This document shows positions 19,502 to 37,195 of a DNA stretch of 64,000 bases, one piece after another. The DNA comes from Paucibacter sp. B2R-40 (GTDB lineage: Bacteria; Pseudomonadota; Gammaproteobacteria; Burkholderiales; Burkholderiaceae_C). Location of the stretch: positions 186,001 through 250,000 of the forward strand of contig NZ_JAJIRP010000002.1 in NCBI RefSeq assembly GCF_025717555.1. The letters run 5' to 3'. Every line of letters begins with the position of its first letter. Within the stretch, counting starts at the first letter, position 1. Below the pieces are notes generated by a model, which had not been told where the DNA came from, ran no database searches, and was given only the letters and a program-made list of their open reading frames with translations. Position numbers and translations under genes: made by a program.

Positions 19502-21331
19502 TCAAGGCTTGCGCGCAAAGTGCGCTTCAATCTGCTCCAGTGTTTTGCCCTTGGTTTCCGGCAAGATCAAGGCCGCCACCAGGAAGTAAACCACCGTGCA
19601 GCCAGCCCAGAAGAAGAACATCGCCGCATAACCGTGATTGCCGACGGTGGGCAAGAACACCGCCGCGATCGTGGTCGAGACAAACTGATTGATCAGTAAC
19701 GCAATGCTCATGCCGTTGGAGCGGATGCGCGTGGGCATCAACTCCGACAGCGCCAACCAGACACACACACCCGGCCCCACCGCAAAGAAGGCGACAAAGG
19801 CAAAGATGCAGGCCGTCACCAGCCAACCATGGGTGGCGCTGGGCACCGGCCCGACCAGGGCCTGCGTGATCACCAAGGGCGCGCCTGCCGCGCTGCCGGG
19901 GTCCGCAAAGGGATTCAGATGCAGGCGGCGAAAGAAGGCGCCGATCACGCTGTCGCTCTGCACCGTGTGCTCCCGTGAGATCTCGATCGGCCTGGCATCC
20001 AGCTCGTCGCTGCGCCGGCTCTGCACATTGCTGAAGTCGCCGTAGGCGTAAGACAGGGTCAACTGCTGCGGTGCGCCATCGGCACTCACGCCCAATTGGG
20101 CCAGGCTAGCAGAGTCAAAGCTCAGTTGCAGCCGGTCTTGCTGCACCAGTTGCTGCAGCGCAGGCGTGACGTCGATGCGACCGCGCTCGGCCGACCAGAA
20201 CAGGCTGCCGGCCAAGACCAGCGCCACAAAAATACCGCCACTGCCCAGCATCAACAAAAACTTGCGGCCCTTGCGGTCCACCAGCAGCAGCGCCACCACG
20301 GTCATCAGCGCATTCAAGACCTTGATCGCCACATCGGCCGAATTGGCCACCGAGCCGCTCAAGCCGGCCTGGTTCAGGATATTGACCACATAGGCCAAGA
20401 TCGAGTTGATACCGGTTGCCTGGGTGCAGGCCAGAATCACGCAGGCCAACAGAAACGGCGCCCTATAACGGCGACTGAACAAGGGCTCACGCGCGGCCGC
20501 CTCTGGCCCCTTGACAGACCCTGTCGCCCCTGCCATCCCTGTCGCTGCAGCCGCCTGCTGCATCTCGCGCAGCTCTTGCTCGGCGGCGGCGGCACTGCGG
20601 CTGCGCAAGAGCGCAGTGCGGGCTTGGTCGATATCCAGCGGCCGGCCCCGGCCGACCAACCAGCGCGGCGACTCACTCAAGAACAGGCAACCGAGCGTGA
20701 ACACCAGGCCGGGGCCCAGGCAAATCCAAAAGATGCTGCGCCAGGCCTGATCTTTGGCCGCAAACAAGGCCTCGCCGCCGCTGCCGGCAACGGCTTCGAC
20801 CGAACGCGCGTAATACAGGCCGATCAAGGCCGCCACCACCAAGCCTATGGTCAAGAGCAATTGAAACATCGCCGTGCCGCGCCCACGCTTATCAGCATTC
20901 AAGCATTCGGCCAGATAGAGCGGTACCACCACACCGATCAAACCGCCGCTGATGCCTTGCAGCAATCGGCCCAGCAGCAGCGGCGTGTAGCCATCGGCCA
21001 GCGCGATGATGGGGATGCTCAAGGTGAACAGCAAGCCGCTCAAGACCATCACCTTCTTGCGCCCGACCCAATCGGCCAGCGCGCCGGCAAACAAGGACGA
21101 CAAAACGCTGCCCAAGAGCACGGCCGCGACGATGAAGCCGAGTTGCTGTGCGCTCAAACGCCAAGTTACCGATGCGGTGGACTCCAGATAGGGCAGCGCG
21201 CCGGCGATGATGCCGATGTCAATGCCATACAGCAATCCGCCCATGCCGGCGATGAAAAGCATGAAGCGCATGGGCCAAACTTTGGGCGAATCAGTAGCGG
21301 CCTTGAGGCTGGCGAAGGCAGGTGCATTCAT
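19502..21331 (-). CDS. MFS sugar porter with a large periplasmic insertion
   Basis: The 609-residue inner-membrane transporter has the sugar-porter signatures: GLLYGIDIGIIAGALPYLE in the first helix, DWVGRKKVM, SESPRWLVGRGR, VDRKGRKFL and PETKGKTLEQIE near the C-terminus. About 115 residues (roughly 380-495, from SAERGRIDV to GPVPSATHG) interrupt the usual 12-helix fold in an external loop and look beta-rich and soluble. It is the last gene of the leftward aga operon, so it probably brings GalNAc, or a short GalNAc-containing oligosaccharide, across the inner membrane. The ATG at 21331 has AAGGA upstream; a TTG at 21355 is less likely. The insertion may bind substrate or a partner; that is a guess. 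Confidence 0.82.
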   Translation of the reverse strand: MNAPAFASLKAATDSPKVWPMRFMLFIAGMGGLLYGIDIGIIAGALPYLESTASVTWRLSAQQLGFIVAAVLLGSVLSSLFAGALADWVGRKKVMVLSGLLFTLSIPIIALADGYTPLLLGRLLQGISGGLIGVVVPLYLAECLNADKRGRGTAMFQLLLTIGLVVAALIGLYYARSVEAVAGSGGEALFAAKDQAWRSIFWICLGPGLVFTLGCLFLSESPRWLVGRGRPLDIDQARTALLRSRSAAAAEQELREMQQAAAATGMAGATGSVKGPEAAAREPLFSRRYRAPFLLACVILACTQATGINSILAYVVNILNQAGLSGSVANSADVAIKVLNALMTVVALLLVDRKGRKFLLMLGSGGIFVALVLAGSLFWSAERGRIDVTPALQQLVQQDRLQLSFDSASLAQLGVSADGAPQQLTLSYAYGDFSNVQSRRSDELDARPIEISREHTVQSDSVIGAFFRRLHLNPFADPGSAAGAPLVITQALVGPVPSATHGWLVTACIFAFVAFFAVGPGVCVWLALSELMPTRIRSNGMSIALLINQFVSTTIAAVFLPTVGNHGYAAMFFFWAGCTVVYFLVAALILPETKGKTLEQIEAHFARKP

Positions 21332-21351
21332 GCGGGTGAATCCTTGAACGG

Positions 21352-22458
21352 TCAAACGAGAGAAACAAATTCACCTTCGATGACCACGGTCTGCACTTGC
21401 AGATCGGCATCCAAGACGACCAAGTCAGCCCAGGCGCCCGGCGCGATACGGCCGCGCTCGGGCAGGCCCAGGTAGTCGGCCGGGTGGCTGGACAGGCAGT
21501 TCGACGCTGCTGCCAGATCAAGGCCGATCGAGAGCAAATTGCGCAGCGCTTGGTCCATCGTCAAGGCGGAGCCGGCCAGCGAGCCCGAGGCCAAACGCAC
21601 ACAGCCCAAGCATTTCATGACGCGTTGTGAGCCGAGCGCATATTCGCCGTCCGGCATGCCGGTGGCCGCCGTCGCGTCGGTCACGCAATAGAGCTTGGGG
21701 ATGGCGCGGATGGCCGCCCGCATGGCCCCTGGATGCACATGCTGCAGATCCGGGATCAGCTCTGCGTACTCCGCATGGGCCAGCGCCGCGCCGACGATGC
21801 CGGGCTGGTAATGATTCAAGGGCGTCATGCCATTGAACAGATGCGTGAAGCCGGCCACGCCGGCTTGCAGCGCCGCCAGGCCGTCCTCATAGCTGCCGGC
21901 CGAATGACCGATCTGCACGCGAATGCCCAAGTCATTGAGTTGCGGGATCAATGCCAAGTGCCCGCTCAATTCAGGCGCTAGCGTCAAAACCTTGATTGGC
22001 GCAATCGCGTGATAGTGAAGCACCTGCTCCAGTGTGGCCGAGCAGACAAGATTGGGCTGCGCGCCCAAGCGCTTCTCGCTGATGAAGGGGCCTTCCAGAT
22101 GCACGCCGAGGATGCGGGCCGTGCCGGGCGCGCGCTGAGCGATCGCCTCGGCCAAGCCGTCCAGCGCATGCTCAATCGCTGCCGGGCTGGCCGTCATGGT
22201 CGTGCCCAGCATCGAGGTCGTGCCATGCTGGGCATGGGCCCGCGCGACCTGCACCGCCGTATCACCGCCCTGCATGATGTCCACACCGGCGCCACCATGC
22301 ACATGCAGGTCCACAAAGCCCGGCAGAATGCTCAACTCGGCTGGCGCGTCAGCATCGGGGTGGACGCTGAGCACGCGATCATCGAATTCAAGCCGACCGA
22401 GCAGCCAGCCGGCGGGCGTCAGGATGCGCCCCGACAAGGTTTTTTTGTCTGTGCTCAT
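21352..22458 (-). CDS. nagA: N-acetylhexosamine-6-phosphate deacetylase (NagA/AgaA type)
   Basis: This 368-residue enzyme removes acetate from GlcNAc-6-phosphate or, given this operon, more likely GalNAc-6-phosphate. Family motifs are present: FVDLHVHGGAGVDIMQG (metal/substrate region near 50), LGVHLEGPFISEKRLGAQ, HLFNGMTPLNHYQPGIVG and YCVTDATAATGMPDGEYALG, which carries the catalytic Asp. The start ATG overlaps the agaR stop (ATGA). In the E. coli and Shewanella GalNAc pathways the dedicated deacetylases are called AgaA or AgaAII; sequence alone does not tell me which sugar epimer is preferred, so the symbol nagA is used for the family. Confidence 0.88.
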   Translation of the reverse strand: MSTDKKTLSGRILTPAGWLLGRLEFDDRVLSVHPDADAPAELSILPGFVDLHVHGGAGVDIMQGGDTAVQVARAHAQHGTTSMLGTTMTASPAAIEHALDGLAEAIAQRAPGTARILGVHLEGPFISEKRLGAQPNLVCSATLEQVLHYHAIAPIKVLTLAPELSGHLALIPQLNDLGIRVQIGHSAGSYEDGLAALQAGVAGFTHLFNGMTPLNHYQPGIVGAALAHAEYAELIPDLQHVHPGAMRAAIRAIPKLYCVTDATAATGMPDGEYALGSQRVMKCLGCVRLASGSLAGSALTMDQALRNLLSIGLDLAAASNCLSSHPADYLGLPERGRIAPGAWADLVVLDADLQVQTVVIEGEFVSLV

Positions 22459-23246
22459 TCAACGATGATCAGCTCTATGCCCAGGCGCTGCAGGCCATCG
22501 CGGTACTCATTGCTGATGCCGGCGTCGGTAATCAGCGTGTGCACGCGCTCAAGCTGCACAATGCGGTGCAGGCTGACGCGACCGAACTTGCTGGAGTCGC
22601 TCAGCACGATGACCTTCTTGGCGCGCTCCACCATCATGTGATTGAGCCTCGCCTCGGCCTCGTGATGGGTGGTCAGGCCGAACTGCAGATCGCAGCCGTC
22701 CACACCCAGGAACAGCTTGTCGAAGATATAGCCGCCCAAGCAGGCCTCGGCCTGCGTGCCCAGGATGGACAAAGACTTCTTGCGCAAGAGGCCGCCGGTC
22801 AGCATCAGCTCGACGCCCTCGGCATCGGCCAACTCCCAGGCGATGTTCAGGCCGTTGGTCATCACCGTCACATTGCGCAATTCACGCAAATGGTGAGCCA
22901 GCGCCATCGTGGTGCTGCCGGAGTCGATGATGATGTTGTCGCCACTAATCACCATCTGTGCGGCTCGCGTGCCGATGCGCTCCTTCAGGCTGGTGTTCAA
23001 GCCGTCTTTTTGGCGGATATTGTGTTCCTGCGGCGGCATGCGCTTGAGCGCGGCGCCGCCATAGCTGCGCGTCACCAAACCCTGCTCTTCAAAAGCGGCC
23101 AGGTCGGTGCGTATCGTCACCGCCGACACGCCCAGCTTGGGCGCCAGGTCCGACACCTGCACGCTGCCCCGCTCCATCAGCAACTGCATGATCTGCTCGC
23201 GGCGCTGGCCAGTATTGCGGCTCGGAGGCTTGCTGTTCTTGCTCAT
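22455..23246 (-). CDS. agaR: DeoR-family transcriptional regulator AgaR
   Basis: This 263-residue repressor has an N-terminal DeoR helix-turn-helix (RREQIMQLLMERGSVQVSDL, VSAVTIRTDLAAFEEQGLV, YGGA) and a C-terminal sugar-phosphate-binding domain with DSGSTTMALAHHLRE, VMTNGLNIAWEL, LTGGLLRKKSLS, LFLGVDGCDL and SDSSKFGR. The pattern closely follows E. coli AgaR, which represses GalNAc/galactosamine genes. It sits inside the operon, coupled to the downstream deacetylase by an ATGA overlap. A TTTCGTTTCAA element lies 17 bases upstream of its start, matching another in the divergent promoter of the locus, so autoregulation is likely. Confidence 0.85.
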   Translation of the reverse strand: MSKNSKPPSRNTGQRREQIMQLLMERGSVQVSDLAPKLGVSAVTIRTDLAAFEEQGLVTRSYGGAALKRMPPQEHNIRQKDGLNTSLKERIGTRAAQMVISGDNIIIDSGSTTMALAHHLRELRNVTVMTNGLNIAWELADAEGVELMLTGGLLRKKSLSILGTQAEACLGGYIFDKLFLGVDGCDLQFGLTTHHEAEARLNHMMVERAKKVIVLSDSSKFGRVSLHRIVQLERVHTLITDAGISNEYRDGLQRLGIELIIVE

Positions 23247-23257
23247 GGCTTGCTTTT

Positions 23258-23274
23258 CAATTCTTTCGTTTCAA
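23258..23274. promoter_or_regulatory. Candidate AgaR operator upstream of agaR
   Basis: CAATTCTTTCGTTTCAA shares 15 of 17 positions with the element at 26982-26998. TTTC/TTTCG-rich direct repeats are the known style of AgaR sites. It lies in the 39-base gap between agaR and the upstream agaZ, so it could drive or repress an internal promoter. Confidence 0.6.
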
Positions 23275-23285
23275 GAAGCTGCATT

Positions 23286-24620
23286 TTAAGCAATCGAAAG
23301 CGAAGGAGTTTTCATACTTTCGCCCAGCCCATGGCGGTTGCGGCTGCAGGCACGCGCATAGCGCGCCAACACCACGCCGACCTTGTGCTGGGCCAGCGCC
23401 CTCGGTGTCGCGGCCAACTCACCGCGCAAAACTGCGTCGAACTGCTCCGGCAGGTATTGGCTCAGCAGTGGCAAGGCAATCGCTTGCTGCTCTAAATTGG
23501 CGATCAGCTTGGCCACGGCGGCCTGCACGGCGGCGTCGCCCCAGTAGTAGCGGCAGCGGTCGCTGAGCGCGTAGGCACGCAGCAGATGCTGCTGCGCCGG
23601 CGTGCCGCTGTAATGTTTGGCCCAATGCTTGGGCTCGGCCAACATGCGCTGCTCCAGCACCGCCGGCAGTTGCGACTGGCGGCCAAAGGGCACGATCTCG
23701 CGCTCGATCGCCGCCAAGGCAAACCAGGCCTCCCGCAAAGCGAAAGTGACGGCCGGGCCTACTTTCAGAATCGCAAAATGATCGCGCACCAGCGCATGCA
23801 TCGCGGCTTCGGTTTGATAGTCGGTCGAATGGGCCTCGAACACCAAAGCCGGCGGGTCCATCTGCTGAGCCACGAACTTAGACAAGTTGGCCGCTGCCTG
23901 GGGCGCGTAATGCTGAATCTGGCTGTGATCAAAGTCCACGCCCGGCTGCACCACCATCGCAATCACGCGCTGCCAAGCACTCTGCAGCCCATGCGCGGCA
24001 AAGGCCGCCGCATGCACGGCCAAAGTGGCTGCGGCTGCAGCCGGCGAGGTCACGGCCACGCCGGCGCCCAAGGAAGCCTCACCACCGGGAATCGGCACTT
24101 CGGTGCCGATCACATAGACGGGCGGCGCCAAGCCGGCCTCAAGCGCGGCCCGTTCAGCGACGGCGGCCAAGACTGCGGAGCGTTCAGCAACGATCTCGTC
24201 CGGCAGGCGCTTGGGGTCATCCGAGCAAGCCATGCTGCAGTCGAGGTGAATCTTCTCAAAACCCGCCGCCACATAGCTGCGGATCAACTCGGCAGCAAAC
24301 GCCATCGCCTCGGCGGCCGGCAGATGCTGCCAGGCGTTGGGCCCCAAGTGATCGCCGCCCAAGAGCAAGCGGTCGGCGGCAAAGCCTTCTTCTTGCGCCA
24401 GCTTCAACACATAGCTGCGAAATTGAACCGGGTTCATGCCGGTGTAACCGCCAAACTGATCGACCTGATTGGAGGTCGACTCGATCAACAAAGGCGTGCC
24501 GTAACGCTTAGCCTGCTCAAACGCGGCCCGCAGCACATATTCATTGGCCGAGCAAACGCTATAGATGCCGACGGGCTGGCCCTGACGGTGGGCGGTGATG
24601 ATGTCAAGAAGGTGAGACAT
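23286..24620 (-). CDS. agaZ: GatZ/KbaZ/AgaZ family protein (tagatose-6-phosphate step)
   Basis: The 444-residue product matches the GatZ/KbaZ/AgaZ family in length and motifs: GIYSVCSANEYVLRAAFEQA, LIESTSNQVDQFGGYTGM, LLLGGDHLGPNAWQ, IHLDCSMACSDDPKRLPDEI, YVIGTEVPIPGGE and VFEAHSTDYQ. In E. coli these proteins are described as the non-catalytic partner of tagatose-1,6-bisphosphate aldolase; comparative studies in Shewanella proposed a tagatose-6-phosphate kinase role for AgaZ. No catalytic AgaY/KbaY subunit is present in the window, so either it is elsewhere or this protein acts alone. It lies 10 bases from the kinase gene upstream in the same operon. Confidence 0.87.
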   Translation of the reverse strand: MSHLLDIITAHRQGQPVGIYSVCSANEYVLRAAFEQAKRYGTPLLIESTSNQVDQFGGYTGMNPVQFRSYVLKLAQEEGFAADRLLLGGDHLGPNAWQHLPAAEAMAFAAELIRSYVAAGFEKIHLDCSMACSDDPKRLPDEIVAERSAVLAAVAERAALEAGLAPPVYVIGTEVPIPGGEASLGAGVAVTSPAAAAATLAVHAAAFAAHGLQSAWQRVIAMVVQPGVDFDHSQIQHYAPQAAANLSKFVAQQMDPPALVFEAHSTDYQTEAAMHALVRDHFAILKVGPAVTFALREAWFALAAIEREIVPFGRQSQLPAVLEQRMLAEPKHWAKHYSGTPAQQHLLRAYALSDRCRYYWGDAAVQAAVAKLIANLEQQAIALPLLSQYLPEQFDAVLRGELAATPRALAQHKVGVVLARYARACSRNRHGLGESMKTPSLSIA

Positions 24621-24629
24621 AGGCTTGCT

Positions 24630-25589
24630 CTAGGAATTTGAAATGAAAGGCTGCTGGCGCGCCAACAAGGCCGCGCCGCGCGTGCCGCCGGCGTCGCCGA
24701 AAGCGGGCGGCAGAATCGGCGGCACGCGTGCGCCCGCAAAAAGGTGGCGCGCCACTGCGGCGGGCAAATCTCGGTACAGGCGCTGCAGCTTGGACAAGCC
24801 CCCGCCCAGCACGATCACATGCGGGTCCAAGACCAGCACCAAGCCGGCCAGGCCGTAAGCCAGCACATCCAGATGCACGGCCAAGCTGCGCTGCGCCAGC
24901 GCCTCGCCACTGTCGGCACGCTCGCTGATGGCGGCGGCATCAAGCGCTGCACCGCCAAATTCTTGATACAGGGCCGCCAGCCCGCTGCCCGAAACATAAC
25001 GCTCCAAGCAAGCAGTCAAGCCGCAGCCGCAAGGCCAGAGGGGCAGGCCATGGCGCTCGCGCAGCGTGGCCGGTAATCCGCCATGCCCCCATTCGCCGGC
25101 CAGGCTGTTGTAGCCGCGCAGCAAGCGCCCGCCGACGCAATAGCCGCCACCGGCACCGGTGCCCAGAATCGCCCCGAACATGCTCTCGGCCCCGGCCGCC
25201 GCGCCGCCGTGCGCCTCGGACAGCGCAAAACACTGGCAGTCATTGCCCACCACCACCGGCCGCCGCAGCCGCGCCGTCAAGGCCGGTGCCACCGCTTGGC
25301 CATTCAGCGCCGGCACATTGGAGCTCAACTGCAATCCACTGACCGGGTCGACGACACCGGGCAGGCCCAGGCCGACCACGCCGCGTTGACCCAAATCCGC
25401 ATCGGCCGCCTCCACCAAGCCCGCCAACGCCTCGACAAAAGGCGAAAAGTCCTGGGTCGGCGTGTCAACACGCCGCCGCCAGCGCTCGCTCAAGACCGCG
25501 CCTTGGTAGGCCACCAACTCAATCTTGGTGCCGCCAATATCGATGCCGTAGAACAGGCCGTCAGTGAATATTGGGTGCGACATAGGCAT
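24630..25589 (-). CDS. agaK: ROK family sugar kinase, probable N-acetylgalactosamine kinase
   Basis: The 319-residue kinase has the ROK phosphate-binding motif GIDIGGTKIELVA near residue 14, LGLPGVVDP, the catalytic Asp region VVGNDCQCFALSE, ILGTGAGGGYCVGGRLLRG, and the zinc-binding cluster EWGHGG...LWPCGCGLTACLERY. Sequence type is NagK-like (GlcNAc kinase); the operon argues for GalNAc as substrate, giving GalNAc-6-phosphate in pathways without a phosphotransferase system. Start ATG 25589 or 25583; both lie within agaS, so the genes overlap by about 25 bases. Sugar specificity is inferred from context only. Confidence 0.82.
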   Translation of the reverse strand: MPMSHPIFTDGLFYGIDIGGTKIELVAYQGAVLSERWRRRVDTPTQDFSPFVEALAGLVEAADADLGQRGVVGLGLPGVVDPVSGLQLSSNVPALNGQAVAPALTARLRRPVVVGNDCQCFALSEAHGGAAAGAESMFGAILGTGAGGGYCVGGRLLRGYNSLAGEWGHGGLPATLRERHGLPLWPCGCGLTACLERYVSGSGLAALYQEFGGAALDAAAISERADSGEALAQRSLAVHLDVLAYGLAGLVLVLDPHVIVLGGGLSKLQRLYRDLPAAVARHLFAGARVPPILPPAFGDAGGTRGAALLARQQPFISNS

Positions 25590-26757
25590 GCAGGGTGACG
25601 CCTTGGACGACGCGGTTGACGGTGCCGTCCGGGAAAGGGTTGTCCGGCGTCAGCCCCAATGCGGCTGAGCGGTGCAGCGCGTACTGCTGTGCCGCCAGCA
25701 AACACAAAGGCGCCAGCCAAACATCGCCGGCGGCCGCCAGATCGGCGCCCACGCTGAACAGCAAATTGCCGGCGCCGCTGCCCGCCGCGCCAAGCTCACT
25801 TGTACCCACTTGCAAAACACGTCCGGCCACGCCTTCGCGCTGCAGCTCAGCCAACAAGTCAGCGTCGAATTTACGCACATGCGGGTCGCTGGACGGAAAC
25901 AACACCACCAAGGTGTTCTCGTTCAGGATCGACTTGGGGCCATGGCGAAAACCCAAGCAGGTATTGGCGAAGGCCAGCACGCGCCCACAGGTCAGCTCCA
26001 GGATCTTCAGTGCCGACTCCTTGGCCAGCGCCTCCAGCGGCCCGCTTCCCAGGTAAACCACGCGCGCGAACGGCTCTTGGGCCAAGGCGGCGAGCGGCGC
26101 CGCCCAGTCGCGCAGCCGCAGTTCGGCCTGCGCTGCCAGTGCCTCGACGCGGGCCAAACGGTTGTCCCAAGCGTCGCGACCGAAGGCCAGCAGCGCCGCC
26201 AACTGCATGCAAGAAAAACTACTGGTCATCGCGAAGCCACGGTCACAGGAGCGGCTGGGCATCAAGAGATTGAAGCTATCACGCTGGTCGGCATTGCGTG
26301 TGTACAGCGCGCCGTCGGCATTGCAAGTAATGTTCAAAAAGAGCGGCGCGTCTACCAGCTGACGCAAGAGATCAACAGCACCCAGACTTTCGGGGCTATT
26401 GCCGCTGCGCGCGAAAGACACCAGCAGCGTCGGCTGATCGCGCCGCAAGTAAAGTGCCGGATGCGAGATCAGGCTGGTGGTGGCCACGGCGCGCACCTGC
26501 GCCGGCCAGAGGCGATTGATTTCATCCACCACGCCTTCGCCGCAGTAGGCGGAGCTGCCGGCGCCAGTCAGGATCACTTGGTGAGTCGGCTCGCTCAACC
26601 ATTCATTCAAGAACGCGGCCAAAGCGGCTTGCCGTGCAGGCTCGAAGGACTGCGCCAGTTCGCGCCACACCGCCGGTTGCTGGGCAATCTCTTCGGCCGT
26701 AGCCAGCCCGCCTAGGGCCTGCCAGTCGTCACGGGGACGGTTCAGTAATGGATTCAT
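25561..26757 (-). CDS. agaS: SIS-domain galactosamine-6-phosphate deaminase/isomerase AgaS
   Basis: AgaS converts galactosamine-6-phosphate to tagatose-6-phosphate plus ammonia. The 398-residue product carries two SIS domains with ILTGAGSSAYCGEG, LLVSFARSGNSPESLGAV, LNITCNADGALY, CDRGFAMTSSFSCM, VVYLGSGPLEALAKESALK, FRHGPKSILNENTLVVLF and the C-terminal DGTVNRVVQGVTLHAY, all typical of AgaS rather than GlmS or NagB-II. It is the first gene of the leftward operon. The ATG at 26757 gives MNPLLNRPRDDWQALGG, the usual AgaS start; a GTG 72 bases upstream would add unconserved residues. Confidence 0.9.
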   Translation of the reverse strand: MNPLLNRPRDDWQALGGLATAEEIAQQPAVWRELAQSFEPARQAALAAFLNEWLSEPTHQVILTGAGSSAYCGEGVVDEINRLWPAQVRAVATTSLISHPALYLRRDQPTLLVSFARSGNSPESLGAVDLLRQLVDAPLFLNITCNADGALYTRNADQRDSFNLLMPSRSCDRGFAMTSSFSCMQLAALLAFGRDAWDNRLARVEALAAQAELRLRDWAAPLAALAQEPFARVVYLGSGPLEALAKESALKILELTCGRVLAFANTCLGFRHGPKSILNENTLVVLFPSSDPHVRKFDADLLAELQREGVAGRVLQVGTSELGAAGSGAGNLLFSVGADLAAAGDVWLAPLCLLAAQQYALHRSAALGLTPDNPFPDGTVNRVVQGVTLHAYVAPNIH

Positions 26758-26817
26758 TGAGCGCGGTGAAAACAGTGAAGCCGGAAGCGGCGGTAGTTGG
26801 GCATCGCTTGACAGCGA

Positions 26818-27062
26818 TTTCACTTTCACTTTAGCAAAGTCGAAAGAAAAAAGAAAGTCAGGATCTAAAAAATAAATCAGGTCCAGCTGCGCAGCATGCT
26901 CTGCTCTAGTTCTCAGCTATAGCTTGTCAAAACAAAGCATGAGTCGATTCAATTGTGGTCAATTTGCAAGCAGCAACGAATCAATATTTTCGTTTCAATT
27001 GTTTATTTCTAGTGGTTTTCACTATATTTCGTCAAATATCTTTCGGTCTGCCTTTCACTCAA
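26818..27062. promoter_or_regulatory. Divergent promoter region of the GalNAc locus with AgaR-like sites
   Basis: This AT-rich region stands out from its GC-rich surroundings and separates agaS from the GH31 gene. It holds CAATATTTTCGTTTCAA (26982-26998), nearly identical to the element before agaR; four copies of TTTCACT (26818, 26824, 27017, 27053); and GACTTTCTTTTTTCTTTCGA on the minus strand (about 26840-26859). Known AgaR sites are TTTCRTTTY-type direct repeats, so repression of both divergent units by AgaR is likely. I could not place the -10/-35 boxes with confidence. Confidence 0.6.
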
Positions 27063-27142
27063 TTGACTGCGGAACCCTGCTTGCCTAGAGTTCGATCAAC
27101 TCTTTCAGATTGAGGCCTCGAACGGCCAGGGAACACACAGGC

Positions 27143-30100: not shown

Positions 30101-30571
30101 CGCGCGGGCGCAGGCTTGGCCGAGCAGCAACGCTATCTGTCTGAGCTGCGCCTGCCCAAAGGCGTCGCCAAAGACAAACCGGCCGGCGCAAGCCAAGCAC
30201 TGGCCATGCGCATGAACGGCTTGAAGTTCCAGCAAGGCTTGGGCGTCGGTGCGCAAAGCCGCCTGGATCTGAAGCTGCAAGGGCCATGGAACCTGTTCCG
30301 CGCTGACCTTGGCATCGATGACAGTTGCCGCGCCTATGGCGGCCTGCAGTTCCAGATCTGGGGCGATGAGCGCCTCCTTTACGACAGCGGCCTGGTGCAG
30401 GCACCCGCCGTCGTCAAGCCCGAGATCGACGTGCGCGGCTTGACAACATTGAGCCTGCGCACGCTGGGCGCCGTCGGCAAAGAGGCTCACAAAGTCTGCG
30501 CCAACTGGGCCAATGCCGCGCTCTTGGGTTTCGAAGGCGCACAAGTTGAAATCAATCAGGGTAAGAAATAG
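27143..30571 (+). CDS. GH31 glycosidase with F5/8 and NPCBM modules, probable alpha-N-acetylgalactosaminidase
   Basis: The 1142-residue secreted enzyme has a signal sequence (1-36), a GH31 N-terminal beta domain, a GH31 barrel (about 230-560), beta domains, a discoidin/F5-8 type C module (about 825-935, HAIENAFDGKPDTWFRTTRN) and a C-terminal NPCBM domain (about 985-1142, ANWANAALLGFEGAQV). In the barrel, KLDVAWTGAGYQFSMDANQS and YAVTWTGDQSSSWDYIRWHI followed by FGGSPETFTRDLQWKTFTPV match the alpha-GalNAcase branch (GH31_18), not alpha-glucosidases or xylosidases. Likely catalytic Asp residues are 390 (nucleophile) and 441 (acid/base), 51 apart. It starts the rightward GalNAc unit. Substrates could be Tn antigen or core mucin-type glycans, or microbial polysaccharide. 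Confidence 0.85.
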   Translation: MKLQAPQALNKSPLKATSLAALVVISLLQVDGLAAAPLGNLRELVALPASPDQATKPSAAQWELRAEGKARLRISLLRADVLRIEASPNERFAASEDKAAPIVLAQALAPVSAIEHKLSDQGDHYLLQTDSLALRINKKPLRLALYRADNKQLLWRETEGLDLSDKLSVQTLSSHKNERFYGGGQQNGRFEFKGKQLEVSYSGGWEEGDRPSPAPFLMSSNGWGILRNSWRDGSYDLRQNERITLAHQDGRFDAFIFAGPGIQQVMARYTELTGRAKMLPRWAYEYGDADCYNDGDNVKKPGTVPKGWSDGPTGKTPDVIESVAKKYREHDMPGGWILPNDGYGCGYTDLPKVVAGLSELGFRTGLWTENGVDKIKWEVGTAGTRAQKLDVAWTGAGYQFSMDANQSAYQGILDNSDARPFLWTVMGWAGIQRYAVTWTGDQSSSWDYIRWHIPTLIGSALSGQAYASGDVDAIFGGSPETFTRDLQWKTFTPVLMGMSGWAAQARKHPWAYDEPYRSINRKYLKLKLRLTPYMYGLAQEAEASGAPIVRGLMWDHPNDPNANTEVHKYQFLLGRELLVAPVFRSQTASQGWRKNIYLPEGLWFDYWDGRQVQAGASGKTIDLQVTLDKLPVFVRAGAILPMYPEVLFDGQKPKDQLTLDLYPQGESSYTLYEDDGLTRQYSEQGKNSRQVIAMSAPTQGAGDIRVKVGAVQGDYAGQEAQRSLALIVHSRAKPQAVELGGKVLPESTDQAAFDAATQGWWFDANDKFGTVHIKTPKRSIRHAAEFTLKISTEAVLVKNEDFPAAPELGRQVPVDSLTVVNRPGEEPGHAIENAFDGKPDTWFRTTRNQAMRAGPHEWVLGLGERRMIDGFEIAPRNDKNWKHGQVRDYEVYLGDNNGDWGKPVQVGQLKLQEGLQTVNFAKPAAGRLLRFRVLSTHNGDADQAASGVDEMVTAVSAQAAPAKAFNALAPSEVEPIVLSEFHLLEQRAGAGLAEQQRYLSELRLPKGVAKDKPAGASQALAMRMNGLKFQQGLGVGAQSRLDLKLQGPWNLFRADLGIDDSCRAYGGLQFQIWGDERLLYDSGLVQAPAVVKPEIDVRGLTTLSLRTLGAVGKEAHKVCANWANAALLGFEGAQVEINQGKK

Positions 30572-30653
30572 CGCAGAGCCCCCAAAGAGGGCCTGTCAAA
30601 AATAACTTAAGAACTAGGCGGCAGATGGGTCTGACCGCCTTCAACCGGAGAAC

Positions 30654-33599
30654 ATGAAAATGAAAGTTACGAAATTGGTGGCACTGCTGGCTGCAGCAGG
30701 TTTGGTTCAAGTGACTCACACAGCCTATGCCGCTGAAGAGCTGGACCGCGTTGAGATCACCGGCTCCAGCATCAAGCGGGTCAACGCCGAAACGGCTTCG
30801 CCGGTGCAGGTGATCACGGCCAAGCAAATCGAAAGCATGGGGGCACGCACCTTGATGCAAGTCTTGGACAACCTGCCCGCCGCGCGCCCCGGTCAGCAAG
30901 ACTTCCGCTCCTTGTTCAGCGGCTCTGACGGCGCCTCGCAAGCCAATCTGCGCGGCCTCGGCGCACAGGGCACCTTGGTGCTGTTGAACGGCCGCCGCCT
31001 GTCCTTCTACGGGGCACCGGAAGGCTTTCAGACCCAGTTCGTCAATATCGACGCGATCCCCGCCGCCGCGATCGAGCGCATGGAGGTGCTGACCGACGGC
31101 GCCTCGGCCGTCTACGGCTCGGACGCGATCGCCGGCGTCATCAATGTGATCACCAAACGGGCTTATCAGGGCTTGGAGCTGAGCCTGACGACCGATCACT
31201 CACGCGAAGTCAAGGCTTATGGCGAACACCAGGCCAGCGCCACCTACGGCTTCGGCGACTTCGAGCGCGACCGTTTCAATATCTACGGCTCGATCAATCT
31301 GTTCAAACGCGACCGCATTGCCTTCTCGGACACCTACGACAAGCGCCCTGAGCAGTTCTATATCAACAACCCGACCTTCATCAGTGACCTGCGCATCGGC
31401 ACTGGCAGCGAGCGCGGCGTGCTCAACCCCGGCACCCTGTTTGTGTTTGACTCCAAGAATGTGCGCACCAGAATGGCCGCGCCGGGTTGCAACAATGTCC
31501 TGACCTCGGGCGCCAGCACCAGCTGCGTCGTCAATGGCTTGCCCAATCAACTCGACACCGGCCCCAAGAGCGACCGCGCCACTGGCTACCTGGCGGGGCG
31601 CCTGAATATCAGCCCGGCGATGGAGGGCTTTGCCGAGCTCGTCTACACCGACATCAATCTGCGCGGCGAGCGCGGACCGGGCAGCTTCAGCAGCGGCCAG
31701 ACCATCAACTGGTACTCGCGCAATACCGGCACCACGCTGAACACCTTTATCGCCCCCTTCCTCGGCCCCAATAACGAATACAACAAGCTGACCCCTGAGC
31801 TCAAGGCCAAGATGGGCGGCGCCGCCGGCCTGAGCTATTTGCTGCAAGATGCGACCGGCCATTTTGGTCAAGAAACGCTGGACAAGAGCTACCGCGCCAT
31901 GACCGGTGTGCGCGGCACCCTATTTGGCGACTGGGACTATGAAACCGCCTTGAGCGTGGCCGGCAGCCACTCGACGGTTTTGCAAACGGGCAATATCAAC
32001 ACGCTCGGTTTCGAGAAGGCTTTTGGCCCCTTCACCTACGACCCGGTCAGCAAGCGCAGCTTCATCCCCGACCATCCGGCCTTCCAGTTCGGCGTAATCA
32101 ACGAGAAGAATGCCGCACTGATCCGCGAGGCTTTCGCGACCTTTGACATCCAGTCCTGGACCAAGCTGGTCAGCCTGGACGGCAAGATCGAGGGCAAGGT
32201 CGCCACGCTGCCGGCCGGCGATGTGCGCGCTGCTTTTGGCTACAACCTGATGCGGGAATCCTTCTACACGCCCGGCAACAAGGACGCGGCCGACGGCCAC
32301 ATCACCCAGCAAGGCGGCTCCTGGTTTGACGGCCAGCGCACCATAGGCGCGCTGTTCAGCGAGGCCATCGTGCCTATCACCAAGAGCCTGGAGCTGGACG
32401 CCGCCGTGCGCCTGGACAAGTACCCGAACTTTGCCGCCAATCTGGCGCCCAAGGTCGGCCTGAAGTTCCGCGCCATGCCGGAGCTGCTGCTGCGTGGCAC
32501 TTACTCACAGGGCTTTCGCGCGCCGAATTTGGCCGAGTCCGGCGAAGGCGGCGTGTTTGCCCAGCGCGGCGGCATGAAGGACACCGTGCGCTGCAATGAA
32601 ACCAACGCCATCGCCAATCAATTGAAAAAGTCGGTCGACAAGGCGGACCAGGATCTCGGCAATACCTTGCTCAACAGCAACTGCAGCAACAATATCGCCG
32701 GGCTGACACCGCCCAACAAGGATCTGAAACCCGAAACAGCCAAGAGTGGCACCTTGGGCCTGGTATTCCAACCTGGCAAGAACTTCGACATCTCGGCCGA
32801 CTATTGGTTGATCCAGCGGCGCGACGAGATCATCCGCCAGGATTTCCAGGAGCTTTATGACCAATACGCCGAGAAATACGGTCCGAGCCTGGCCGGCGCC
32901 CCGGGCGTGATCCGCAGCCCGATCACCGATACCGACAAGAGCAACGTCGCCGCGGCCGCCGCCATGTGCGCCAACCCGGCCAATGCGGCCGCCTGCAGCG
33001 GCAAGCCCTTGAGTTATTCGGTAGGCCTGCTGGCGGGCATGAGCAACAGCTATCTGAACCGTGGCCGCACCCTGGTCGACGGTTTCGACATCGACGCGCA
33101 TGGCCGCTTCAGCCTGGGCGAAATGGGCAAGCTCAATCTGGGTGTGGCCGCCACCATCATGAACCGCAACAAGCATGACGACGCGCTCGGCGAAGGCTTC
33201 TCGCAGAACTATGTCGGCTATTACGGCCAACCCAAGTACCGTGCGACCTTCAATGCTGATTGGCGCTATCAGAACTTCGGCAGCAGCTTGTTCGTCAACT
33301 ACACCGGCGGCACCAAATGGGCCTATGACAAAACCGATGAGGAGAACAACAACCCGACGACCTGTACTGCTGCCGATGTGGCCCTTCCGGCCAATCTGTG
33401 CGGCGGCGCGCCGTCCTACTACACGGTCAATCTGGGCTTCAACTGGGAGCCGGTCAAGTCCTTGAATCTGGGCCTGAACATCAAGAACGTCTTGAACAAG
33501 CAGCCGGACTACGACCCGAATGGCTGGGAAGGCTATAACCACGCGCTGAACGTTTTCGGCCGCGTCTACAGCCTGTCGGCCAGCTACAAGTTCTGGTAA
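30654..33599 (+). CDS. TonB-dependent outer-membrane receptor
   Basis: The 981-residue product has a signal peptide (1-27, ending AYA), a TonB-box-like LDRVEITGSSIKR, a plug domain (QVITAKQIESMGARTLMQVL, SQANLRGLGAQGTLVLLNGR, IERMEVLTDGASAVYGSDAI, about 40-165) and a large beta barrel ending with the outer-membrane signal SLSASYKFW. A long cysteine-containing external loop region lies near 640-690. Its place between two GalNAc-active glycosidase genes suggests uptake of GalNAc or GalNAc oligosaccharides, like AgaO/NagO-type receptors, though sequence does not define the ligand. GGAG precedes ATG 30654 closely; the ATG at 30660 has better spacing. Confidence 0.9.
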   Translation: MKMKVTKLVALLAAAGLVQVTHTAYAAEELDRVEITGSSIKRVNAETASPVQVITAKQIESMGARTLMQVLDNLPAARPGQQDFRSLFSGSDGASQANLRGLGAQGTLVLLNGRRLSFYGAPEGFQTQFVNIDAIPAAAIERMEVLTDGASAVYGSDAIAGVINVITKRAYQGLELSLTTDHSREVKAYGEHQASATYGFGDFERDRFNIYGSINLFKRDRIAFSDTYDKRPEQFYINNPTFISDLRIGTGSERGVLNPGTLFVFDSKNVRTRMAAPGCNNVLTSGASTSCVVNGLPNQLDTGPKSDRATGYLAGRLNISPAMEGFAELVYTDINLRGERGPGSFSSGQTINWYSRNTGTTLNTFIAPFLGPNNEYNKLTPELKAKMGGAAGLSYLLQDATGHFGQETLDKSYRAMTGVRGTLFGDWDYETALSVAGSHSTVLQTGNINTLGFEKAFGPFTYDPVSKRSFIPDHPAFQFGVINEKNAALIREAFATFDIQSWTKLVSLDGKIEGKVATLPAGDVRAAFGYNLMRESFYTPGNKDAADGHITQQGGSWFDGQRTIGALFSEAIVPITKSLELDAAVRLDKYPNFAANLAPKVGLKFRAMPELLLRGTYSQGFRAPNLAESGEGGVFAQRGGMKDTVRCNETNAIANQLKKSVDKADQDLGNTLLNSNCSNNIAGLTPPNKDLKPETAKSGTLGLVFQPGKNFDISADYWLIQRRDEIIRQDFQELYDQYAEKYGPSLAGAPGVIRSPITDTDKSNVAAAAAMCANPANAAACSGKPLSYSVGLLAGMSNSYLNRGRTLVDGFDIDAHGRFSLGEMGKLNLGVAATIMNRNKHDDALGEGFSQNYVGYYGQPKYRATFNADWRYQNFGSSLFVNYTGGTKWAYDKTDEENNNPTTCTAADVALPANLCGGAPSYYTVNLGFNWEPVKSLNLGLNIKNVLNKQPDYDPNGWEGYNHALNVFGRVYSLSASYKFW

Positions 33600-33705
33600 G
33601 CCGCAGCCGCCCACAACCCGTACAGCAGCGCTTGGGCCCGCCATCGCCTGGCAGGCCGGGCGCCGCTGTGCACGCCGAACCCAGCTTTGATCACAGAAAG
33701 TGTCT

Positions 33706-35100: not shown

Positions 35101-35106
35101 ACTGAG

Positions 35107-35679
35107 ATGCTCATCATGAATAAATGTCTCACTCGCTGGAGCTTGGCGCTTGCCACTGCTGTGTCCGTCGCCCTGCCCGCAAGCGCCGATGTGCTGACGC
35201 TGGATGTCAGCGGCATCAATAGCCAGGACGTGATCGGCTCGGCCGCCAACACCGTCCTCAACTTCAATCTCGGCGCGCTGGCCCATATCAACAGCCTCAG
35301 CTGGCAAGTCAATCTGGATGCCTACAACCCGAGTTGGCTGTCGGAGCTGCAGCTGAGCCTGAGCGGAGCACAGACGAGCAGCGCCGGCCTGTTGTTGGCG
35401 CCCGGCGCGGGCAGCGACTTTTCTGGCAGCCAGGCCTTTGGCGGCTCGATTGATTTGCTCGATCAGGGCTTGGACTTCAGCGTCGGCGCCGACGGCATCT
35501 TGCGTTTGGAGTTCAGCGAAGCGGCGTCCGATGGCCTGAGCCCCGACGGGCGCTGGGTCAGCGGCCAAGTCGTGATCGACTGGACCGCCGCCGCTGTGCC
35601 TGAGCCGGCTGGCTATGCTCTATTCGGCTTGGGTTTAGTCCTGATGGCTGGGCTGGCACGATCACGTAAGCTCAGCTGA
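35107..35679 (+). CDS. PEP-CTERM sorting domain protein in the GalNAc unit
   Basis: The 190-residue product has a signal peptide (ending ASA, near residue 28), a beta-rich middle (VLTLDVSGINSQDVIGSAAN, SSAGLLLAPGAGSDFSGSQA) and a C-terminal exosortase signal VPEPAGYALFGLGLVLMAGLARSRKLS. It would be cleaved and displayed outside the cell. I do not recognise the middle domain; it resembles the generic sandwich of many PEP-CTERM proteins. It lies 6 bases after the DUF3472 gene and 18 before GH109, so it belongs to the same transcript. An in-frame ATG at 35116 is an alternative start. Confidence 0.8.
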   Translation: MLIMNKCLTRWSLALATAVSVALPASADVLTLDVSGINSQDVIGSAANTVLNFNLGALAHINSLSWQVNLDAYNPSWLSELQLSLSGAQTSSAGLLLAPGAGSDFSGSQAFGGSIDLLDQGLDFSVGADGILRLEFSEAASDGLSPDGRWVSGQVVIDWTAAAVPEPAGYALFGLGLVLMAGLARSRKLS

Positions 35680-35697
35680 CTGCACCTCCATTTCCCC

Positions 35698-37077
35698 ATG
35701 CCTGCCATGACCATGAATCGTAGAAATTTCCTCCGCTCCTCCACCACCGCGCTGGGTGGATCGGCACTGCTGACGCCCGCGTTTTCCGCTCAAGCCGCCA
35801 CCCGCCCGCGCCTGCGCGTCGGCTTGATCGGCACCGGCATGCGGGGTCAGGTCTTGCTGAAAGAGCTGCTGCGCCGCGACGATGTGGACGTGGTGGCGCT
35901 GTGCGATATCGAGCCCATCATGCTGGGCCGGGCGCTGGCCATGGTGGAGAAGTTCAAGAAGCCCAAGCCGAGCACTTATGGCGAGAGTGGCGACAAGCTG
36001 GCCTACTTGCAACTGCTGGCGCAAAAAGACTTGGACGCCGTCATCATCGCCACGCCCTGGGAGCTGCATGCGGCGATGGCGATCGCGGCAATGGAGGCCA
36101 AGGTCGCGGTGGGCTGCGAGGTGGTGGCCGGCGTCACGCTGCAAGATCACTGGGATGTTTTGCGCACCCAGCAGCGCACCGGCACACCGTATATGTTGCT
36201 CGAGAACGTCTGCTACCGGCGCGATGTGATGGCGGTACTGCAGATGGTGCGGGCCCAGATGTTCGGCGAGCTGGTCCACTTGCAGGGCGGCTATCAGCAT
36301 GATCTGCGTGCGGTCAAATTCAATTCCGGTGACCCAGCCAAGCCCTATGGTGGCGGCGTCGAGTTTGGTGAAAAGGGCTGGTCGGAGGCGCGCTGGCGCA
36401 CCCAACATGCGGTCGACCGCAATGGCGAGCTGTATCCCAGCCACGGCATCGGCCCCTGCGCGATGTACGCGAACATCCACCGCGGCAACCGCTTCACGCA
36501 TATCAATGCCTTCGCCAGCAAGGCGCGCGGCCTGCATGACTTTGTCGCCAACAAAATGGGCAAGCCCGAGCACCCCTCGGCCAAGGTCAACTTCAAGCTC
36601 GGCGACATTGTCACCACCAGCTTGGCCTGCGAGAACGGCGAGACGATTCTGTTGCAGCATGACACCTCGCTGCCGCGCCCCTATTCGCTGGGCTTCCGGG
36701 TGCAGGGCACGAATGGTTTGTGGATGGACGTGAACAACTCGGTGCATATCGAGGGCATCAGCAAGCCGCATGAGTGGGAAGACTTCCAGGCCTACCAGGA
36801 CAAGTTCGAGCACCCGCTGTGGAAGAAGCACGCCGCCACCGCGGCTGAGGCAGGACACGGCGGCATGGACTGGTTTGTCGTCAACGCCTTTATCGAAGCG
36901 CTGAAGGCCGATGCGCCCATGCCCATCGACGTCTATGACGCGGTGGCCTGGAGTGCCATCACGCCGCTGTCGGAGCAGTCGATTGCCGAGGGCTTCAAGA
37001 CCCTCCCCTTCCCGGACTTCACCGAAGGGCAGTGGAAGACGCGCAAGCCGATCTTTGCCTTTGGCGACAAGTACTGA
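35698..37077 (+). CDS. GH109 family NAD-dependent alpha-N-acetylgalactosaminidase
   Basis: GH109 enzymes cleave alpha-GalNAc by an NAD+-assisted redox/elimination mechanism and belong to the Gfo/Idh/MocA fold. The 459-residue product begins with a Tat-type signal (NRRNFLRSSTTALGGSALL), fitting export with bound cofactor. The dinucleotide motif GLIGTGMRGQ is at 42-51. Family hallmarks follow: CEVVAGVTLQDHW (140-152), LLENVCYRRDVMAVLQMVR (168-185), GELVHLQGGYQHDLRAVKFN (190-209), ELYPSHGIGP (244-253), HDTSLPRPYSLGFRVQG and AGHGGMDWFV. This run is characteristic of GH109, founded on Elizabethkingia enzymes active on blood group A. Some GH109 members are inactive on that substrate. Three ATGs (35698, 35707, 35713) compete for the start. 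Confidence 0.87.
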   Translation: MPAMTMNRRNFLRSSTTALGGSALLTPAFSAQAATRPRLRVGLIGTGMRGQVLLKELLRRDDVDVVALCDIEPIMLGRALAMVEKFKKPKPSTYGESGDKLAYLQLLAQKDLDAVIIATPWELHAAMAIAAMEAKVAVGCEVVAGVTLQDHWDVLRTQQRTGTPYMLLENVCYRRDVMAVLQMVRAQMFGELVHLQGGYQHDLRAVKFNSGDPAKPYGGGVEFGEKGWSEARWRTQHAVDRNGELYPSHGIGPCAMYANIHRGNRFTHINAFASKARGLHDFVANKMGKPEHPSAKVNFKLGDIVTTSLACENGETILLQHDTSLPRPYSLGFRVQGTNGLWMDVNNSVHIEGISKPHEWEDFQAYQDKFEHPLWKKHAATAAEAGHGGMDWFVVNAFIEALKADAPMPIDVYDAVAWSAITPLSEQSIAEGFKTLPFPDFTEGQWKTRKPIFAFGDKY

Positions 37078-37195
37078 TTCATAAGGCCCGCGCCCGGTTC
37101 GCCCAGACTTTGCCGGCGATCAAGCTTTGGGGCCTTTTGCCCTGAAGGCTCGCCGCTATCATCAAACCTGTCTCGGCTCGAGACTGGGGTTATTG

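What the first reader, a model, noticed from the sequence alone, without database searches (positions are those of the whole stretch)
19502..37077. Complete alpha-GalNAc utilisation locus combining GH31 and GH109 with an AgaR-type catabolic operon
Seen: agaS, ROK kinase, agaZ, agaR, deacetylase and MFS porter face a unit of GH31 (GH31_18-like motifs), TonB receptor, DUF3472 lipoprotein, PEP-CTERM protein and GH109. Known: AgaS/AgaR/AgaZ serve GalNAc catabolism; GH109 and one GH31 branch cleave alpha-GalNAc. Inference: the locus harvests alpha-GalNAc from glycoproteins or polysaccharides, a polysaccharide-utilisation-like system outside Bacteroidetes. Pairing two mechanistically different alpha-GalNAcases (hydrolytic retaining and NAD-dependent) in one transcript is unusual.
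Basis: partly seen in the sequence, partly recalled or inferred. Interest (0 to 1): 0.9.

Follow-up and report, generated by a model that had tools for sequence, protein, structure and literature searches.

The report
Bacterial locus eating alpha-GalNAc from glycoproteins
A bacterium of the Paucibacter/Roseateles group carries a gene cluster that very probably imports sugar-coated fragments, strips off the sugar N-acetylgalactosamine with two different enzymes and burns it; every part is of a known kind, but this combination under one switch recurs in distantly related bacteria and resembles the mucin-eating kit of gut bacteria.

Summary
By solved relatives the GH31 protein ranks with the alpha-N-acetylgalactosaminidases (GH31_18), not with glucosidases or xylosidases, and the GH109 protein is closest to the GH109 alpha-GalNAcase 2ixa. 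The pairing is no oddity: of 250 genomes of the family, 10 have this GH31, and 9 of those have a GH109 3.6-9.0 kb downstream on the same strand; four genomes of another order show the same block. A six-gene GalNAc catabolic operon stands divergently beside it in 15 of 20 orthologous loci of the same GH31 lineage. CTTTCG repeats like those at the E. coli aga promoters crowd the region between the two arms, so AgaR probably controls both. Some relatives also hold a GH35 beta-galactosidase, GH20, ricin-type lectins or (in the other lineage) an M60 peptidase, which points to O-glycoproteins as food. DUF3472 and the PEP-CTERM protein are accessory. No agaY partner of agaZ was found in any of the 49 stretches searched. 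Substrate and activity are untested. Both enzyme kinds are already known together in Bacteroides and Akkermansia, so this is a new variant of a known kind.

The parts
19502..21355 (-). MFS sugar porter, probable inner-membrane GalNAc permease (AgaP role)
   Evidence: PF00083 285 bits, TIGR00879 above cut-off; specificity inferred from locus
21352..22458 (-). GalNAc-6-P deacetylase (AgaA/NagA type)
   Evidence: TIGR00221 234.9 bits, cut-off 225.65
22455..23246 (-). AgaR, DeoR-family repressor
   Evidence: NF040755 325 bits (cut-off 260), NF007316 359 (351)
23263..23322 (.). candidate AgaR half-sites upstream of agaR (CTTTCG/CGAAAG at 23263, 23295, 23317; the last two inside the 3' end of agaZ)
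   Evidence: two or more such sites near the start of agaR in 10 of 26 relatives read, exactly one upstream in 10, none upstream in 6
23286..24620 (-). AgaZ/GatZ-like protein; Tag-1,6-bisP aldolase subunit or Tag6P kinase
   Evidence: TIGR02810 602.7 bits above cut-off; no AgaY in window or fetched loci, single Fba found in genome
24630..25589 (-). ROK-family sugar kinase, probable GalNAc kinase (AgaK)
   Evidence: PF00480 206 bits; PRK13310 284 bits, below its cut-off 380
25561..26829 (-). AgaS, GalN-6-P deaminase/isomerase; real start probably ATG at 26757
   Evidence: TIGR02815 406 bits, below cut-off 529
26817..27057 (.). divergent operator region with CTTTCR/YGAAAG half-sites (exact CTTTCG type at 26841 and 27040 only)
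27063..27091 (+). sigma-70-like promoter of the GH31 arm (TTGACT, 17 nt, TAGAGT)
   Evidence: the scan as a whole finds no more promoter-like sites than shuffles, 3 vs 3.0; but the same TTGAC-TAGAG pattern is in 15 of 18 orthologous regions against 0.06 on average in mononucleotide shuffles
27110..30571 (+). GH31_18-type alpha-N-acetylgalactosaminidase with CBM32-like and NPCBM domains and a signal-peptide-like start
30654..33599 (+). TonB-dependent outer-membrane receptor
   Evidence: PF00593, PF07715
33700..35100 (+). DUF5077+DUF3472 lipoprotein, possible accessory glycan-binding protein
   Evidence: PF11958 324 bits; solved relative 4qhw 368 bits; role inferred
35107..35679 (+). small PEP-CTERM protein, accessory
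   Evidence: PF07589 24.1 bits; two exosortases in genome
35698..37077 (+). GH109 NAD-dependent alpha-N-acetylgalactosaminidase, Tat-like signal (RRNFL)
   Evidence: Tat reading from sequence and recall

Best explanation
The locus is an AgaR-controlled alpha-GalNAc utilisation system. The TonB receptor imports small glycopeptides or oligosaccharides bearing alpha-GalNAc. In the periplasm GH31_18 removes peptide-linked GalNAc by retaining hydrolysis, and GH109, exported folded with its NAD by Tat, removes other terminal alpha-GalNAc. The MFS porter brings GalNAc into the cell, the ROK kinase makes GalNAc-6-P, the deacetylase GalN-6-P, AgaS tagatose-6-P; AgaZ and/or a phosphofructokinase plus the housekeeping aldolase finish the route. 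GalNAc-derived phosphosugars lift AgaR from CTTTCG-repeat operators at the two divergent promoters and at agaR. Shown here: gene content, family ranking, conserved linkage, operator enrichment in the orthologous regions. Inferred: export route, substrates, kinase specificity, inducer, AgaR binding and the order of steps.
For: GH31: best solved relative is the E. faecalis GH31 alpha-GalNAcase at 393 bits, next GH31 kind 183; 566 vs 302 with a 12-sequence profile. Asp401 and Asp452 kept in 33 of 33 aligned rows. Characterised GH31_18 enzymes act on alpha-GalNAc and, so far, nothing else (PMC13096917, passages). GH109: 485 bits to 2ixa; Tyr199, Arg234, Tyr246, His249, Tyr329 kept in 25 of 25 rows. 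Linkage: 9 of the 10 GH31-bearing genomes among 250; 4 more genomes among 398. All six aga genes in 15 of 20 type-1 loci. Operators: 72 exact sites in 18 intergenic regions vs 11.2 (sd 3.3) in shuffles; 7.5 per kb vs 0.36 per kb in the rest of the same loci. E. coli aga promoter regions carry 5 and 5 CTTTCR-type sites, three control intergenics 0.
Against: No activity, growth or binding data. AgaS and the ROK kinase score below the cut-offs of their best models. No agaY; two PFK genes exist, so the last steps are not settled. One GH31_18 enzyme acted on pNP-alpha-GalNAc but on none of the natural substrates tested (PMC13096917); the Akkermansia GH31_18 needed more than one amino acid, and its GH109s spared Tn antigen (PMC11790493). 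The window has only 2 exact CTTTCG-type sites between its arms; a strict 17-base operator pattern had no match in the genome, while its reversed control had 3. Six genomes of 250 have the same GH109 kind without this GH31. 6 of 26 relatives show no site upstream of agaR.
Confidence: 0.83

Rival explanations
1. The true food is an environmental alpha-GalNAc polysaccharide (cyanobacterial, algal, fungal or the bacterium's own exopolysaccharide), not glycoprotein; the PEP-CTERM protein would tie it to floc or biofilm matrix.
For: PEP-CTERM protein in the operon and two exosortases in the genome; its best NCBIfam match, far below cut-off (33 of 80 bits), is a flocculation PEP-CTERM protein; GH109 enzymes accept non-peptide alpha-GalNAc (PMC11992087; PMC11790493; passages). 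The window itself shows no beta-galactosidase or M60 peptidase among the neighbours scanned.
Against: No endo-acting depolymerase among the window genes scanned; PEP-CTERM is in only 4 of the 20 type-1 tree rows, the window included, plus L003; some relatives carry GH35, GH20, M60 peptidase or ricin-type lectins; characterised GH31_18 enzymes mostly take peptide-linked GalNAc (PMC11790493).
Confidence: 0.25
2. The locus mainly salvages free GalNAc or small alpha-GalNAc glycosides, and the two glycosidases are minor accessories.
For: The E. coli aga locus has no glycosidase, and the Shewanella entries seen list none (PMC2996990, passages).
Against: Both glycosidases stay linked to the aga operon across two orders and GH31 carries two carbohydrate-binding-type domains.
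Confidence: 0.12
3. Within the pathway, AgaZ is the tagatose-6-P kinase itself rather than an aldolase subunit (compatible with the best explanation).
For: agaZ stands without agaY in all 25 distinct stretches that hold it (30 before dropping repeats); the one class II aldolase found is TIGR01521 type next to purC; the idea is cited in PMC12118421 (passages) from Leyn 2012 (not held).
Against: Two PFK-family genes could do the step; no kinase motif examined; agaY was sought in the relatives' fetched stretches only, not in their whole genomes.
Confidence: 0.5

Closest known systems
Aga pathway of Shewanella (agaP, ompAga, agaAII, agaK, agaS, agaO; PMC2996990, passages seen)
   Same: outer-membrane receptor, permease plus kinase instead of PTS, deacetylase, AgaS
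   Different: the entries seen list no GH31 or GH109; here both sit in the presumed regulon
Bacteroides thetaiotaomicron PUL BT4240-50 plus BT3169 (PMC11992087, passages seen)
   Same: GH109 and GH31 alpha-GalNAcases, beta-galactosidase (GH2 there, GH35 in some of our relatives), receptor import, GalNAc kinase, MFS
   Different: GH31 is numbered outside the PUL; SusD-like protein; kinase of the APH family; M60 peptidase in the PUL; AgaS not mentioned in the text (0 occurrences)
E. coli MG1655 aga locus (read)
   Same: AgaR, KbaZ/AgaZ, AgaS and CTTTCG-repeat promoters
   Different: PTS uptake, kbaY present, no glycosidase or TonB receptor
Akkermansia muciniphila Amuc_1008 GH31_18 and two GH109 (PMC11790493, passages seen)
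   Same: both enzyme kinds in one organism with complementary targets
   Different: no common operon described in the passages seen; locus tags far apart

Membership tests
GH31 subfamily 18 | closest to characterised GH31 alpha-GalNAcases, far from other GH31 kinds | tested here: met
   393 vs 183 bits; 566 vs 302; solved structures only
GH31 subfamily 18 | Asp pair in KxDVAW and WTGDQ motifs (roles partly recalled) | tested here: met
   Asp401, Asp452; 33 of 33 rows
GH31 subfamily 18 | hydrolyses alpha-GalNAc | not testable with these tools
   needs assay
GH31 subfamily 18 | placement in a tree with all CAZy GH31 subfamilies | not tested
   CAZy sequences were not at hand; ranking of solved relatives used instead
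GH109 | GH109 C-terminal domain plus NAD-binding fold | tested here: met
   PF21252 274 bits, PF01408 46 bits
GH109 | active-site Tyr/Arg/His of 2ixa kept (roles recalled) | tested here: met
   25 of 25 rows
GH109 | alpha-GalNAc activity | not testable with these tools
   needs assay
AgaR | passes curated AgaR models | tested here: met
   325 of 260 and 359 of 351 bits
AgaR regulon | half-sites like those of the E. coli aga promoters between the two arms | tested here: met
   72 vs 11.2 over 18 regions, though only 2 in the window's own; binding not tested
GalNAc Aga pathway, E. coli form | AgaZ/KbaZ with its catalytic partner AgaY/KbaY | tested here: not met
   KbaY tblastn finds no match in the window or 48 loci, with E. 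coli and the own Fba as positive controls
GalNAc Aga pathway, Shewanella form | outer-membrane receptor, permease, kinase, deacetylase, AgaS | tested here: met
   all five present; AgaS and kinase below model cut-offs, roles partly by context
Bacteroidetes-type PUL | SusC/SusD pair | tested here: not met
   TonB receptor 42 bits against the SusC/RagA cut-off of 368; no SusD domain among the genes scanned

The most novel reading that the evidence does not exclude
This is a dedicated O-glycoprotein (mucin-type Tn/core-1) utilisation system of free-living beta- and gammaproteobacteria, with an AgaR regulon that links a two-enzyme alpha-GalNAcase set and TonB import to catabolism, assembled independently of the Bacteroidetes PULs, in which DUF3472 proteins (ricin-lectin-fused in relatives) take the place of SusD-like surface binding proteins.
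Probability: 0.35. Interest if true: 0.6.

Novelty: new variant of a known kind. Interest (0 to 1): 0.42.

Why it matters
It would extend mucin-type O-glycan feeding, studied mostly in gut bacteria, to environmental Proteobacteria (habitats recalled, not tested here), give matched pairs of alpha-GalNAcases for removing GalNAc from peptide-linked and A-type glycans, and offer a simple, probably AgaR-controlled system to test why two mechanistically different enzymes are kept together.

Tried and rejected
The lipoprotein at 38441-40432 with a HELTH motif looked like a peptidase partner. It does lie just beyond the locus in two close relatives, L002 and L007. But it occurs in 24 of 250 family genomes, and in all five sampled genomes other than the window's own that have both it and the GH31 (G007, G013, G111, G206, G228) it is on another contig or more than 300 kb away. 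I treat it as a neighbour of close kin only. The only solved match was insignificant (E 0.06).

AlphaFold of the DUF3472 protein with six sequences was poor (mean pLDDT 44.8), so no fold search was made. A profile search found the solved relative 4qhw. No paper naming 8pmu/8pn3/8pn5 was found; the four papers naming DUF3472 concern centipede venoms or fly viruses by their titles.

PFK search to force the AgaZ-kinase idea: two genes found, so not decisive. A strict operator pattern gave one match in the window with one mismatch (0.12 expected; 11 of 100 shuffles had at least one) and none in the genome, so no wider regulon is claimed.

Rows left out: six loci (L052, L053, L055, L058, L059, L064) repeat earlier ones. 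L003, L018 and L019 were dropped from the GH31 set because the translated match stretch held a stop; L028 and L029 for short alignment; L027 by choice, from the tree only.
Full report
WHAT IS THERE. The window belongs to a 5.6 Mb genome close to Paucibacter/Roseateles (GH31 92% identical in P. oligotrophus, 88% in Paucibacter sp. TC2R-5 and a Roseateles MAG). Two divergent gene arms start from one intergenic region. The minus-strand arm is agaS, ROK kinase, agaZ, agaR, deacetylase, MFS porter, with short gaps or overlaps; the plus-strand arm is GH31, TonB receptor, DUF5077+DUF3472 lipoprotein, PEP-CTERM protein, GH109, with gaps of 82, 100, 6 and 18 bases. AgaR passes both AgaR models; AgaS and the ROK kinase are below the cut-offs of their best models, so their names rest partly on context.

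THE TWO ENZYMES. The GH31 protein scores 393 bits against the solved E. faecalis GH31 alpha-N-acetylgalactosaminidase and 183 against the next kind of GH31; a profile of 12 relatives gives 566 and 302. The two motif aspartates, residues 401 and 452, are invariant in 33 of 33 aligned rows; two solved variants carry Asn or Ala at the first, as nucleophile mutants would. That subfamily 18 holds only alpha-GalNAc enzymes so far is from passages of PMC13096917; that members take GalNAc from peptide is from passages of PMC11790493. The same papers add limits: one member showed no activity on the natural substrates tested, and the Akkermansia member needs more than one amino acid. The GH109 protein scores 485 bits against 2ixa and keeps the five residues I recall as active-site residues in 25 of 25 rows. 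Its N-terminus (MNRRNFL) looks like a Tat signal; this would fit export with bound NAD, but that is inference.

IS THE PAIRING REAL AND HOW COMMON. In 250 genomes drawn from the family, the GH31 is in 10 and GH109 in 17. GH109 matches fall in two score groups: 272-285 bits (15 genomes) and 200-201 bits (3 matches; one genome has both). Nine of the 10 GH31 genomes have the high-scoring GH109, in all nine 3.6-9.0 kb downstream on the same strand. Six genomes have that GH109 without the GH31; one (G223) has the GH31 without GH109. In 398 genomes across the phylum the GH31 is in 8 including the window's own; four others, all of family f17 in another order, have GH109 3.7 kb downstream. G341, also f17, has GH31 at one contig end and receptor plus GH109 at another, compatible with the same block. 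G373 and G603 have only a lower-scoring GH109 (209-211 bits), hundreds of kb or more away. So presence is sporadic but, where both are found in these two families, linkage is tight.

TWO LINEAGES. A tree of 32 GH31 rows separates type 1 (20 rows: Sphaerotilaceae, other members of the window's family, Thermomonas, f17 and three loosely placed MAGs) from type 2 (12 rows: Rheinheimera, Oxalobacteraceae, Colwellia and others). A GH109 at least 70% identical lies in the fetched stretch of 18 of 20 type-1 loci (not in L008, L023) and 0 of 12 type-2 loci; all six aga genes lie in 15 of 20 type-1 loci. L020 and L025 have five, their stretch ending near the missing porter; L008 starts at a contig end; L023 has three divergent ones; L015 has none. 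The receptor is not constant: in L006 the slot holds a different outer-membrane protein and in L054 a divergent receptor. The GH31 and GH109 trees agree on several close groups (for example L054 with L006 and L056; L004 with L005; window with L002), but not on L009 with L057, and several GH109 forks are weak. Presence in two orders suggests transfer or loss; I did not test which.

REGULATION. In 18 agaS-GH31 intergenic regions (9,591 bases), CTTTCG or CGAAAG occurs 72 times; 200 dinucleotide shuffles gave 11.2 on average, at most 21. The rest of the same loci has 0.36 per kb against 7.5. In 15 of 18 regions a TTGACn-17/18-TAGAG promoter stands before GH31, often with half-sites just upstream of it or in its spacer; the window's copy is at 27063-27091 (where promoter-like sites overall do not exceed shuffles). 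Sites also lie near the start of agaR: in the window at 23263, 23295 and 23317; two or more in 10 of 26 relatives read, one upstream in 10, none upstream in L009, L022, L023, L051, L061 and L062. In the 140 bases or so before receptor, GH109, porter, deacetylase and agaZ only three cases turned up (GH109 in L063 and L070, porter in L060). As control, the E. coli agaR-kbaZ and agaS promoter regions have 5 CTTTCR-type sites each and three nearby intergenic regions none. The likely mechanism is AgaR repression overlapping both promoters, with autoregulation. The window alone is weak (2 exact sites between the arms); the case rests on the relatives.

METABOLIC ROUTE. Uptake without PTS, kinase, deacetylase and AgaS matches the Shewanella type of Aga pathway (PMC2996990, passages; PMC12118421, passages). 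agaZ stands without agaY: E. coli KbaY finds no match in the window or in 48 fetched loci, 25 of these stretches (repeats dropped, window included) holding agaZ, while it finds itself and the own-genome Fba. That Fba, the only class II aldolase found in the genome, passes the fructose-bisphosphate model, fails the tagatose model, and lies next to purC. Either AgaZ is the tagatose-6-phosphate kinase, as PMC12118421 reports from Leyn 2012 (not held), or one of two PFK genes serves.

SUBSTRATE. Accessory genes of orthologous loci speak for O-glycoproteins: GH35 beta-galactosidase in L003, L009, L023 and L057 (type 1) and L012 (type 2), GH20 in L006, DUF3472 with ricin-type lectin in L008 and L051, and an M60 peptidase with ricin-type lectin next to the type-2 GH31 of Colwellia, L022. 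I scanned chosen neighbours only, so most loci were not fully annotated. B. theta uses a like kit: beta-galactosidase, GH109, GH31, M60 and GalNAc kinase (PMC11992087, passages). Among the window genes scanned none of these extra enzymes stands beside the locus; the genome's one GH35 match is elsewhere.

ACCESSORY PARTS. Close DUF3472 relatives (64% or more) are in L002, L003, L007, L020 and L025, distant ones in L008, L009 and L056 (25-28%) and L051 (Pfam); PEP-CTERM relatives in L002, L003, L020 and L025. The genome has two exosortases. Their role is unknown; surface binding is my guess.

NOVELTY. The text searches for GH31+alpha-GalNAcase+GH109 (19 papers listed), GH31_18 (4 papers), GH109 with Roseateles/Lysobacter/Paucibacter/TonB terms (1 paper) and mucin/O-glycan with Rheinheimera/Lysobacteraceae terms (8 of 43 listed) showed no description of this block by title or abstract start; subscription papers are mostly not held. 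Enzymes, regulator and pathway are of known kinds; the conserved block and its common AgaR control do not appear in those listings.

Noticed in passing
38441-40432: Lipoprotein of 663 aa with a HELTH zinc-peptidase-like motif, no Pfam family; in 24 of 250 family genomes; next to the locus in L002 and L007 but unlinked in five other genomes that have both. Possibly an undescribed secreted peptidase family.
   Followed up: partly
L022:6358-8748: M60 peptidase with ricin-type lectin domains between agaR and a GH31_18 gene in a Colwellia.
   Followed up: partly
L051:16168-18171; L008:10049-11476: DUF3472 together with ricin-type lectin domains in one protein next to GH31_18, a hint that DUF3472 handles galactose/GalNAc glycans.
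   Followed up: no
16468-19479: Adenylate/guanylate cyclase domain fused to AAA ATPase and TPR repeats, convergent with the MFS porter and kept beside the locus in five relatives, L002-L005 and L007.
   Followed up: no
37127-37933: Weak solute-binding-protein-like gene downstream of GH109, kept in L002-L005.
   Followed up: no
L019:3078-9980: Distant GH109 (37%) divergent from an agaR-agaZ-agaS-ROK-agaA run ahead of GH31 in an uncultured gammaproteobacterium: a second, perhaps independent pairing.
   Followed up: no
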